Shown here piece after piece: positions 60,253 through 64,000 of a stretch of 64,000 bases of DNA. Under the pieces are notes generated by a model that was not told the origin of the DNA, made no database searches, and saw nothing but the letters and a program-made list of their open reading frames with translations. Both the position numbers and the translations under genes were made by a program. This DNA is from Salinigranum halophilum (GTDB taxonomy: Archaea > Halobacteriota > Halobacteria > Halobacteriales > Haloferacaceae): positions 310,001 through 374,000 of the forward strand of contig NZ_SSNL01000004.1 in the NCBI RefSeq assembly GCF_007004735.1, read 5' to 3'. The stretch's first letter is position 1, and each line of letters begins with the position of its first letter.

Positions 60253-62886
60253 ATGAGCCAGCATCGAAGCCAGATCGACATCCAGGGGATGAGCTGTGCG
60301 AACTGTTCGCAGAGCATCGCCGACGCCGTCGGTGCCCTCGACGGCGTGTCGGAGGTGAACGTCAACTTCGCCACCGACGAGGGGACCGTCGAGTACGACC
60401 CGGCGGTCGTCTCGCTCGGGCGGATCTTCGAAGCCATCGAGGAGGCCGGATACCACCCCGTCACGGAGTCGGTGACGGTCGCCATCACGGATATGTCGTG
60501 TGCGAACTGCTCGGAGACGGTGCAGGAGGCACTCGCGGGGACGCCGGGGGTCGTCGACGCGGACGTCAACTACGCGACCGACGAGGCGCAGGTCCGCGTC
60601 AATCCGGCGGAGGTGAACCGTTCGACCCTCTACGACGCCATCGAGGACGCGGGCTACACACCCGTCAGGGAGGACGGAGCGGACGGCGACGGTGACGGTG
60701 ACTCGGGGACCGACGCCCGCGACGCCGCCCGCCAGGCCGAGATTCGGCGTCAGCTGCGCCTGACGCTGTTCGGCGCGGCGCTCGCTACCCCCCTGCTCTT
60801 TTTCATCGTCGAGAAGCTCCTGCTGGGTGGGAGCGTCCTCCCCGACCGGGTCTTCGGCGTCGAGTTCGGCTGGGTCCAGTTCCTGCTCGCCACGCCGGTG
60901 CAGGTGGTCCTCGGCTGGCCGTTCTACAGGAACTCCTACAAGGCGCTCGTGAAGAACGGCCGCGCCAACATGGACGTCCTCATCGCGCTGGGGTCGACGA
61001 CGGCGTACCTCTACTCCGTCGCCGTGCTCGGTGGGGCCATCGCCGGGAGCCTCTACTTCGACACGGCGGCGCTCATCCTCGTGTTCATCACGCTCGGCAA
61101 CTACCTCGAGGCCCGCTCGAAGGGCCAGGCCGGCGAGGCGCTCCGGAAGCTGCTGGAGATGGAGGCCGAGACGGCGACCCTCGTCGATGACGAGGGCAAC
61201 GAACGCGAGGTCCCACTGGAGGACGTCGCGGTCGGCGACCGGATGAAGGTGCGCCCCGGCGAGCAGATTCCGACGGACGGGGTCGTCGTCGACGGGCAGT
61301 CCGCAGTCGACGAGTCGATGGTCACCGGCGAGTCGGTCCCCGTCGAGAAGCGCGAGGGCGACGAGGTCGTCGGCTCGACCATCAACGAGAACGGCGTCCT
61401 CGTCGTCGAGGCGACGAAGGTCGGGTCGGACACCGCGCTGCAACAGATCGTCCAGACTGTCAAGGAAGCGCAGTCGCGCCAACCCGACATCCAGAACCTC
61501 GCCGACCGCATCTCGGCGTACTTCGTCCCCGCGGTCATCGCGAACGCCCTGCTGTGGGGGCTCGTCTGGTATCTGTTCCCCGCGACGCTCGCCGGCGTCG
61601 TCGAGTGGCTCCCGCTGTGGGGGCTGGTCGCGGGCGGCCCTGCCGTCGCCGGCGGGAGCGTCTCGGTCTTCGAGTTCGCCGTCATCGTCTTCGCGTCGGC
61701 CGTGCTCATCGCCTGCCCCTGCGCGTTGGGGCTGGCGACGCCGGCGGCGACGATGGTCGGTACCACCCTCGGCGCACAGCACGGCGTCCTGTTCAAAGGC
61801 GGTGACGTCCTCGAGCGCGCGAAGGACGTCGACACCGTCGTCTTCGACAAGACGGGGACGCTCACGAAGGGCGAGATGGAGTTGACCGACGTCGTCGCCT
61901 TCGACGAGAAGCGCCCGGTCACCGACGGGGGCGCGCTCGCCGAACCCGACCGACTCACCGAGGAGACGGTCCTCCGCCTCGCGGCCAGCGCCGAGCGCGG
62001 GAGCGAACACCCGCTCGCCCGGGCGATCGTCGACGGAGCGCGAGCGCGCGGCATCGACGTGCCCGAACCCGACCGCTTCGAGAACGTCCCGGGTCACGGC
62101 GTCCGGGCGACCGTCGATGGAGACGAGGTGCTCGTCGGCAACCGGAAGCTACTCCGCGACAACGGCATCGACCCCGACCCCGCGGCGGAGACGATGGAGC
62201 GACTCGAAAGGGAGGGGAAGACGGCGATGCTCGTCGGCCGCGTGCCTGCCGACGCGAGCGCGTCCGCTGACGCGAGCGCGGGCGAACTCCTGGGCGTGGT
62301 CGCCGACGCCGACACGGTCAAAGAGAGCGCGAAGGAGGCCGTGAGCGCCCTCCGCGAACGCGGCGTGGACGTGATGATGCTCACGGGCGACAACGAGCGG
62401 ACCGCCCGCGCCGTCGCCGAACGGGTCGGCATCGACCCCGAGAACGTCCGCGCGGGGGTCCTCCCCGAGGACAAGTCCGACGCCGTCGAGGCCATCCAGG
62501 CCGAGGGACGCAAGGCGATGATGGTCGGTGACGGCGTCAACGACGCCCCCGCGCTCGCGGTCGCCTACGTCGGCACGGCCATCGGGAGCGGGACCGACGT
62601 CGCCATCGAGGCCGCCGACGTCACGCTGATGCGCGACGACCCGCTCGACGTGGTGAAGGCCATTCGAATCTCGGACGCGACGCTCGCGAAGATCAAACAG
62701 AACCTCGTGTGGGCGCTCGGGTACAACACGGCGATGATTCCGCTGGCCTCGCTGGGCCTGCTCCAGCCGGTGCTCGCCGCCGGGGCGATGGCCTTCTCGA
62801 GCGTGTCGGTGTTGGCGAACAGCCTGCTCTTTCGGCGGTACAGCCCCGAGGAAGACTACGAACTGTTCGGGAAGCTTCGGCGGTAG
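60253..62886 (+). CDS. copA: CopA-type copper-transporting P1B ATPase
   Basis: 877 residues. Two N-terminal heavy-metal domains carry GMSCANCS and DMSCANCS. The membrane CPC motif is [14 protein letters not shown]. Phosphorylation site DKTGTLTKG, actuator TGES ([11 protein letters not shown]) and hinge [10 protein letters not shown] are present, as are the HP loop and about eight membrane helices. It exports Cu+ from the cytoplasm using ATP. Closeness to the Mo-Cu CO dehydrogenase cluster may be chance or may link copper homeostasis with cofactor assembly. Start at 60253, after a short A+T-rich region. Confidence 0.94.
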
Positions 62887-63035
62887 AGTGGCTCCCCACG
62901 ATGTCGACTCGTGAGATTCGGGGGCGAATAGATTGAGCTGAGCTAATTACGAGTAGGTGACCAATCAGCTTGGCTTATTTTATCAAACCCAGAAATAGTA
63001 TTTTAAACAGTTAACGACATTTGAGATAGTAAGTC
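62887..63035. other. Start of a lower-G+C patch
   Basis: From about 62930 the DNA turns A+T-rich (GCTTATTTTATCAAACCCAG, ATTTTAAACAGTTAACG), unlike the upstream genes. TATTTTAAA near 63000 is a likely promoter of the frame starting at 63036. A weak hairpin ATTCG-GGGG-CGAAT lies at 62916-62929. Confidence 0.55.
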
Positions 63036-63962
63036 GTGACTCAGCATCGCGTTCGGATTGTCGCAACTGATGGGGACTATACCCGAACAGTCGCGTTCAT
63101 TCGTTGTGACCCTGATAACGAATACGTCTATGGAACCTGTGACACAATCAGTGGAGACCCTTCGACCAAAATCACATATCACAATGATGGGTATGTTCAT
63201 CATAAGCCGTATCGGTCGGGACCTCTGGATGTAAGGCCAATTTGTTATGGGCCGCCAATCAGGGATTTCACCGGGTTCTTCTCCGGGAATATAGTACGCT
63301 CTATTCCGAGAACATTGGACGGTCTCCAAACGCCATCGTTTGAAGACGATGACCGACCTATCGACCATATCACATATATAGACACCAGAGGTAGTGATGT
63401 CTCTCTGTGCTATCAGTGGATTATGTGTGAGCCAGGATTTCCAGTTGGTGATTTAGTTTCCCGCGCAACTGGACGCGTTGATAAGAACGCACAAGTCAGC
63501 TACCATATCTATACGGCGGTCGACCCTTGGGTAGGTGTAATATATGGTCCCGGGTTTCGACCTGAGTTTTTACCTCCGTACTCCAGCGGTTTCCGACCGA
63601 TGGGTGAAGCAGTTCGAATCCGTGCTGAACGCTCACCATATCCGGAGCCATGCGTAAGCGGGTCACGAGGCTGCGATGGTCCAGATGGGACTGGCCCGCT
63701 CTGTGGAGGTTGTAAAAAAAATATACGAGAGGTCGTGACACCTTGTGAGGGTGTGCCCTTCGAAAGATACCTATATATTGCTATTCAGATGTTTTATCGG
63801 TTTGAATATTATATAGATAGTGGCATGGGTGGCGGATTCGGAACCACGCCGAGACGTGCTCGCTCACGCCGTTCGCTGCGCGCGACTCGTCTGGTTCGAA
63901 TCCACCGTCCACCACACAGCCTCGCACGAGTGCGAGAGACACGGAGGTCTCTCGCGGTGTGA
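63036..63962 (+). CDS. Orphan low-G+C protein with a tail running into normal DNA; probably truncated
   Basis: 308 residues from a GTG at 63036. Family unknown. The core (about residues 1-265) is rich in Tyr, Gly, Asp and Pro; it has four Cys in CVSGSRGCDG and LCGGCKKN (zinc-knuckle-like) and more Cys upstream. Codons are markedly A+T-richer than in neighbouring genes. After about 63828 the frame enters G+C-rich DNA and encodes an arginine-rich tail (TPRRARSRRSLRATR), which is unlikely to be native. So the gene was probably cut at the boundary and reads through by chance. It lies next to a tRNA 3' end, as expected of an integrated element remnant. Confidence 0.5.
   Translation: MTQHRVRIVATDGDYTRTVAFIRCDPDNEYVYGTCDTISGDPSTKITYHNDGYVHHKPYRSGPLDVRPICYGPPIRDFTGFFSGNIVRSIPRTLDGLQTPSFEDDDRPIDHITYIDTRGSDVSLCYQWIMCEPGFPVGDLVSRATGRVDKNAQVSYHIYTAVDPWVGVIYGPGFRPEFLPPYSSGFRPMGEAVRIRAERSPYPEPCVSGSRGCDGPDGTGPLCGGCKKNIREVVTPCEGVPFERYLYIAIQMFYRFEYYIDSGMGGGFGTTPRRARSRRSLRATRLVRIHRPPHSLARVRETRRSLAV
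63826..63845. repeat. Imperfect copy of the tRNA 3' end (att-like)
   Basis: TGGGTGGCGGATTCGGAACC resembles the tRNA 3' segment at 63976-63997 (TGGGTTGGGGCGGATTCGAACC): the ends match, with three bases missing in one part and one extra G in another. It lies where A+T-rich DNA turns G+C-rich. It may be the second att site of an element that entered at the tRNA 3' end. By sequence alone the case is moderate. Confidence 0.4.
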
Positions 63963-63975
63963 TGCTCGGCAGAAG

Positions 63976-64000
63976 TGGGTTGGGGCGGATTCGAACCGCC
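63976..64000 (-). tRNA. Partial tRNA gene, 3' half (probably tRNA-Val)
   Basis: Read on the minus strand, the T arm is GGCGG-TTCGAAT-CCGCC (63984-64000), followed by the acceptor strand CCAACCC and discriminator A at 63976. The gene continues past the window end, so anticodon and identity are not visible. An acceptor of GGGUUGG/CCAACCC is what haloarchaeal tRNA-Val genes have, as I recall. The 3' end faces the low-G+C patch. Confidence 0.8.

What the first reader, a model, noticed from the sequence alone, without database searches (positions are those of the whole stretch)
62930..64000. A+T-rich orphan gene truncated at a composition boundary beside a tRNA 3' end
From about 62930 to 63825 G+C drops strongly and one unknown Cys-containing protein is encoded. 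Its frame then continues into G+C-rich DNA with an arginine-rich tail. The tRNA 3' end at 63976 faces this patch, as integrating elements prefer. No integrase is seen, so it may be a remnant.
Basis: partly seen in the sequence, partly recalled or inferred. Interest (0 to 1): 0.6.

Follow-up and report, generated by a model that had tools for sequence, protein, structure and literature searches.

The report
tRNA-tail hairpin repeat beside orphan remnant
In a salt-loving archaeon, a scrap of foreign A+T-rich DNA holding a broken gene of unknown kind lies against a small folded repeat that copies the end of the neighbouring tRNA gene, and this repeat turns out to sit behind many different tRNA genes across the haloarchaea and matches nothing I could find described.

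Summary
Window 62930-63830 is an A+T-rich patch (47% G+C against about 68%). It carries one open frame (63036-63962, 308 aa) with no relative in any collection searched, and faces the 3' end of tRNA-Val(CAC) on the - strand (63975-64050). The 'arginine tail' is not protein evolution: 63820-63974 is a non-coding tRNA-linked unit read backwards by the frame. In tRNA order the unit is a trailer stem-loop, then a hairpin whose 5' arm is the reverse complement of the T-arm, then a copy of the tRNA's own 3' end; the A+T-rich DNA starts right after that copy. The unit is an old, degenerate member of a widespread family: about 10 of 46 tRNA loci in this genome, 11 of 28 haloarchaeal tRNA-Val(CAC) loci, 37 of 53 Halobacteria against 1 of 242 other genomes of the phylum. 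The tail copy is that of the local tRNA, the hairpin stem shows compensatory changes, and arrays of 2-3 different units occur. I found no Rfam family or paper describing it. The patch itself is most likely a remnant at a tRNA hotspot; no integrase and no second boundary repeat were found. The family's function and means of spread remain inferred.

The parts
62930..63831 (.). A+T-rich patch, foreign composition (47% G+C), probably with the orphan gene's own promoter region at 62930-63035
63036..63962 (+). open frame of 308 aa; residues 1 to about 262 are the orphan protein (C-terminus lost), the rest is read-through into the tRNA-linked unit
   Evidence: no homologue
63820..63845 (-). degenerate copy of the tRNA-Val 3' end (GGTTCcGAATCCGCCacCCAtgCCAC against GGTTCGAATCCGCCCCAACCCAC); junction with the A+T-rich DNA
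   Evidence: local alignment score 15; shuffled-tail maximum 13
63834..63903 (-). T-arm hairpin: 5' arm GGATTCGAACC (63893-63903) pairs with GGTTCcGAATCC (63834-63845); inner GC-rich loop shared with own tRNA-Lys and tRNA-Ala units
63904..63974 (-). trailer stem-loop between the tRNA 3' end and the T-arm hairpin
   Evidence: -34.2 kcal/mol, z -2.3
63975..64000 (-). 3' part of tRNA-Val(CAC); gene continues to 64050 outside the window
   Evidence: L004 9975-10050
60253..62886 (+). copper-type P-type ATPase (copA-like), the chromosomal gene on the far side of the patch
   Evidence: named from its CxxC metal-binding and DKTGT motifs (recalled knowledge, not a family search)

Best explanation
Two things lie side by side on the 3' side of tRNA-Val. 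(1) 62930-63831 is a remnant of horizontally acquired A+T-rich DNA with a truncated orphan gene. It abuts a copy of the tRNA-Val 3' end, so it either landed at, or was cut at, a tRNA-end repeat; the 'Arg tail' is antisense read-through of non-coding DNA. (2) 63820-63974 is one old member of a haloarchaeal family of tRNA-linked repeat units: trailer stem-loop + hairpin with T-arm-complementary arm + copy of that tRNA's own 3' end. Shown: the layout, the tRNA-specific tail, the covarying stem, the spread over many tRNA types, mixed arrays, and near-restriction to Halobacteria. Inferred: the units behave as a small non-autonomous mobile or recombining element that sits at tRNA 3' ends, duplicates about 20 bp of the tRNA, and multiplies through recombination between tail copies, its folded single strand being what is recognised. 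The tail copies keep the tRNA 3' flank recombination-prone, which fits islands and foreign scraps collecting there.
For: Orphan. Hotspot; at the tRNA-Ala locus, with a unit in this genome, congeners G003 and G001 carry 17 and 26 kb between the tRNA and the unit. Unit family: inserts 90% and 83% identical behind own tRNA-Lys and tRNA-Ala, each with that tRNA's own 3' end. Own census: tail copies downstream at 9 of 45 tRNAs plus intron-bearing tRNA-Trp; upstream none apart from a tandem tRNA gene. Own tRNA's last 8 nt match at 7-8 of 8 in 94 of 122 hairpins against 9 of 122 for another tRNA. Inner stem triple 90.5% Watson-Crick against 37.4% shuffled, maximum 51% of 2000; pair table. Distribution 37/53 Halobacteria against 1/242 others, reversed-pattern control 0. 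Arrays of 2-3 units with differing inserts and the same tail. Same unit at tRNA-Val of Natronorubrum bangense, 95% over 62 bp.
Against: No transposase or integrase is tied to the units. At tRNA-Ala a unit is kept in at least three of four congeners, which fits vertical maintenance and perhaps a function. The window's own tail copy carries indels and is not caught by the ungapped test. There is no tail copy on the far side of the A+T-rich patch, so the link between patch and unit rests on adjacency alone. Covariation cannot tell RNA from single-stranded DNA; G.T and A.C mismatches are about equal in the stem (14 and 10).
Confidence: 0.55

Rival explanations
1. The units are functional RNA: a structured 3' trailer co-transcribed with the tRNA, whose T-arm hairpin and tail copy mimic the T-arm/acceptor end and bind or titrate tRNA 3'-processing or modifying enzymes, or end transcription.
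For: Covarying stem, stable folds, position always just 3' of the tRNA (17-80 nt for first copies), retention at tRNA-Ala in congeners.
Against: Only about a fifth of tRNAs carry one; absent at tRNA-Val in three congeners; tandem and mixed arrays; mismatches do not favour G.U over A.C.
Confidence: 0.25
2. The units are worn-out attachment sites: each tail copy is the displaced tRNA end left by a past integrative element and the hairpin is part of its recombination site.
For: tRNA 3' ends are classical targets; large islands sit between tRNA-Ala and the unit in congeners; partial tRNA copies at integrated elements are known in Haloquadratum (PMC3119063).
Against: The spacing between tails is small and uniform (about 60-150 bp) with a conserved, covarying hairpin and no cargo; the islands appear to use a shorter repeat (about 14 nt) than the units' 20-22 nt.
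Confidence: 0.25
3. The whole 308-aa frame is a real gene whose basic C-terminus is functional.
For: The frame is open through the junction.
Against: The tail DNA is a member of a non-coding family found without this gene behind other tRNAs; no homologue has it.
Confidence: 0.03

Closest known systems
E. coli tyrT locus 178-bp repeats / rtT RNA (from memory)
   Same: Tandem repeats directly behind a tRNA gene, each ending in a copy of that tRNA's 3' end; an Arg-rich reading frame can be read through them
   Different: One locus in one group of bacteria; no inverted T-arm hairpin that I know of; Rfam, which I recall holds rtT, gives no match to the haloarchaeal units. Not compared directly here.
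tRNA-end duplications flanking integrative elements (att sites of archaeal tyrosine recombinases, PMC8371274)
   Same: Direct repeat of the tRNA 3' end
   Different: No integrase and no cargo between the repeats; conserved hairpin; many tRNA types; arrays
Transposase-free small mobile repeats of Haloquadratum (MITE, PATE, SMR; PMC3119063)
   Same: Short, no coding capacity, inverted arms or palindromes, haloarchaeal
   Different: Not described as tied to tRNA genes in the sections I read; SMRs cause no target duplication, these units end in a tRNA copy
Integron attC cassettes (from memory)
   Same: Folded hairpin site with covarying arms, array of short units behind an anchor site
   Different: Arms are the tRNA T-arm, not the attC core sequence; no cargo genes, no IntI known

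Membership tests
Integrated element at a tRNA gene (for the A+T-rich patch) | Lies at the 3' end of a tRNA gene | tested here: met
   patch begins at the tRNA-end copy, about 130-150 bp from tRNA-Val
Integrated element at a tRNA gene (for the A+T-rich patch) | Flanked on both sides by copies of the tRNA end | tested here: not met
   only one copy, between patch and tRNA; none on the copA side
Integrated element at a tRNA gene (for the A+T-rich patch) | Encodes or lies next to an integrase | tested here: not met
   no Phage_integrase match on contig C3; none among neighbours
Integrated element at a tRNA gene (for the A+T-rich patch) | Absent from the same place in relatives | tested here: met
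Known RNA families of Rfam | Score at or above a family's gathering threshold | tested here: not met
   only the tRNAs themselves and an unrelated L4 leader
Haloarchaeal T-arm hairpin unit (family proposed here) | 17-80 nt (first copy) behind a tRNA 3' end | tested here: met
Haloarchaeal T-arm hairpin unit (family proposed here) | Hairpin with arms complementary to and equal to the host T-arm | tested here: met
   GGATTCGAACC pairs with GGTTCcGAATCC
Haloarchaeal T-arm hairpin unit (family proposed here) | Ends in a copy of the host tRNA's acceptor 3' strand | tested here: met
   but degenerate (one insertion, one gap, mismatches)
Integron cassette (attC) | Core site consensus GTTRRRY and an IntI-type integrase | not tested
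   The T-arm reads GTTCRAA, which does not fit the consensus as I remember it; no IntI search was made

The most novel reading that the evidence does not exclude
Haloarchaeal tRNA genes serve as anchors of miniature cassette arrays: short hairpin units of several subfamilies are added behind tRNA genes, each insertion duplicating the tRNA 3' end, by an unknown enzyme that recognises the folded T-arm-like single strand; the repeated tRNA ends then make these places landing sites for foreign DNA such as the orphan patch here.
Probability: 0.25. Interest if true: 0.85.

Novelty: new variant of a known kind. Interest (0 to 1): 0.6.

Why it matters
tRNA genes are the main landing sites of mobile DNA in prokaryotes. 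A class-wide, structured, tRNA-specific repeat family at just these sites, seemingly undescribed, would bear on why the 3' sides of haloarchaeal tRNA genes are so changeable, and it confounds att-site calling and gene calling (false Arg-rich reading frames). It offers either a new small RNA element tied to tRNA genes or a new kind of minimal mobile element, and the two can be told apart by simple tests in laboratory haloarchaea.

Tried and rejected
Homologues of the orphan: Pfam, PHROGs, NCBIfam, genome contigs, viral contigs, phages, plasmids, 99 relatives and 391 genomes of the class gave none; the one weak hit (G355, E 4e-4, 32 aa) is an out-of-frame reading of an ABC transporter locus. Structure prediction of residues 1-265 failed (pLDDT 29.5), so no fold search. 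A second tail copy beyond the patch: none. Bifidobacterium, Woesearchaeota and Verrucomicrobia pattern hits are other things, not haloarchaeal units. Loop-only matches on plasmids (H2, H3) are not tRNA-linked. Literature searches found no description, within an open-access library only. The 158 of 230 figure is biased, because most of those loci were fetched by the hairpin pattern; the unbiased figures are those.

Full report
WHAT IS THERE. The window is contig C3:310001-374000 of a 4.2-Mb haloarchaeal genome. G+C drops to 47% at 62930-63830 and rises sharply after 63840. One open frame runs from 63036 to 63962 (308 aa). Its 266 open codons inside the patch exceed every one of 1000 dinucleotide shuffles (maximum 202), so the patch is or was coding. 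Codon positions 1, 2 and 3 have 56, 48 and 42% G+C, unlike a native high-GC3 gene (the comparison is general knowledge of haloarchaea). Residues 1-265 hold 10 cysteines and pI 5.5; residues 266-308 are basic, pI 12. No relative exists in any collection tried.

THE tRNA. Reading past the window shows a complete tRNA-Val(CAC) on the - strand, window 63975-64050, its 3' end pointing at the patch. Upstream of the tRNA lie genes syntenic in three congeners (a 97-aa protein, an NmrA-like protein, a glutaredoxin-like protein, gcvPB; names from recalled knowledge). Downstream of it each congener has different DNA; one (G002) also has an A+T-rich stretch there, 42-46% G+C. The genome has Phage_integrase matches, but none on contig C3.

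THE ARGININE TAIL IS A tRNA-LINKED UNIT. The G+C-rich 63820-63974, read in tRNA direction, is: a stem-loop directly after the tRNA (-34 kcal/mol); GGATTCGAACC, the reverse complement of the tRNA T-arm; a GC-rich loop GACGAGTCGCGCGCAGCGAACGGCGTGAGCGAGCACGTCTCGGC; then GGTTCcGAATCCGCCacCCA, a degenerate copy of the tRNA-Val 3' end. Only after this copy does the A+T-rich DNA begin. The frame runs backwards through this non-coding unit, which gives the Arg-rich tail. The same insert stands behind own tRNA-Lys (90% over 61 bp) and own tRNA-Ala (83% over 52 bp), but there the tail copies are those of tRNA-Lys and tRNA-Ala.

HOW COMMON. Of 45 tRNAs found by the tRNA model, 8 loci have an ungapped copy of their own 3' end within 500 bp downstream (the two tandem tRNA-Asp genes counted as one). 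The window's tRNA-Val makes 9 with a gapped copy, and the intron-bearing tRNA-Trp missed by that model makes 10 of 46. Upstream there is no copy apart from a tandem tRNA gene, and tails of other tRNAs almost never match. Among 28 tRNA-Val(CAC) loci of other haloarchaea fetched by the tRNA and not by the repeat, 11 have a tail copy. A strict pattern for the hairpin hits 55 of 99 relatives, with none for the reversed pattern, and 37 of 53 Halobacteria against 1 of 242 other members of the phylum (counted from its table). Of 151 hairpins, 122 have a recognised tRNA 17-275 bp before them, and most of the rest that are haloarchaeal show a tRNA end the program missed. Many kinds of tRNA are involved, tRNA-Asp(GTC) most often. 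A near-identical unit stands behind tRNA-Val of Natronorubrum bangense, on a large replicon listed as a plasmid.

STRUCTURE. The direct repeat runs from the GG of GGTTC to the end of the tRNA, usually hardly further on either side. In 66 unique hairpins of the commonest subfamily, 18 pairs are 96% Watson-Crick; the outer stem alternates T-A/C-G with the host tRNA, and three inner pairs use up to four pair types. The inner triple is complementary in 90.5% of positions against 37.4% after shuffling partners (maximum 51% in 2000). Mismatches show no clear preference for G.U, so RNA and single-stranded DNA cannot be told apart. At the variable T-arm position C.A (16) exceeds T.G (3), which would fit hairpins that arrived from tRNAs with GTTCGAATC; this is inference.

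ARRAYS AND HOTSPOTS. 42 of 158 loci hold two or three tail copies, with inserts mostly of about 60-150 bp that often differ between neighbours while the tails match. Genome G018 has three nearly identical units at tRNA-Val. At tRNA-Ala the unit is present in this genome, G003 and G001, but in G003 and G001 17 and 26 kb lie between tRNA and unit; in G002 the gene beyond lies about 30 kb away and no intact tail copy was found. Thus foreign DNA enters between tRNA and unit, and units outlast such events.

READING. The A+T-rich patch is best taken as a remnant of foreign DNA at such a hotspot, its gene cut at the outer tRNA-end copy. A classical integrated element is not demonstrated: no second boundary, no integrase. 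The unit family is the larger finding. I commit to a small mobile or recombining element that duplicates the tRNA end (about 40-45% for that step alone), ahead of a functional trailer RNA (25%) and worn att sites (25%). Rfam has no family for it and nine literature searches of an open-access library found none; absence from a partial library is weak evidence of novelty. The nearest parallel, the E. coli tyrT repeats, is from memory.

Noticed in passing
L090, L091, L194-L199: Bifidobacterium genomes and viral contigs carry long near-perfect hairpins that repeat the 3' half of a tRNA (GTAGCGGGGCATGGATTTGAACC...GGTTCAAATCCATGCCCCGCTAC) with no tRNA gene found nearby; a different thing from the haloarchaeal units.
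   Followed up: no
L274 (G003), L275-L276 (G001), L277-L278 (G002): Islands of about 17, 26 and 30 kb on the 3' side of tRNA-Ala in three congeners; absent in the window's genome. Gene content not examined.
   Followed up: partly
L039, right of 9024 (G002:C1 near 530000): Congener G002 has its own A+T-rich stretch (42-46% G+C, about 1 kb) with short frames directly behind tRNA-Val; not compared with the window's patch.
   Followed up: no
own genome units behind tRNA-Gly (C1:330338), tRNA-Asp (C4:300055) and tRNA-Val (window): Several tail copies carry one extra C inside the T-loop (GGTTCACAATCC, GGTTCCGAATCC), as if copies were disabled in similar ways.
   Followed up: no
L249 3001-3030, L250 3001-3030 and six further plasmid hits: The inner loop sequence (CGCGCGCAGCGACC..GGGAGCGAGCACG) recurs on haloarchaeal plasmids with no tRNA found nearby; the two read share a similar flank (CCGCCCCACC..CGCTC / CAGCCAC), so perhaps another repeat family.
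   Followed up: partly
G000:C2:688741-689193 and C2:690014: An integrase match lies within 1 kb of a tRNA gene (C2:690014-690084), likely an ordinary integrated element of this genome.
   Followed up: no
window 63609-63622: GCAGTTCGAATCCG, a T-arm-like stretch inside the A+T-rich frame; in tRNA direction it looks like the 5' arm of a hairpin (GGATTCGAACT). Chance or a lost older unit.
   Followed up: no
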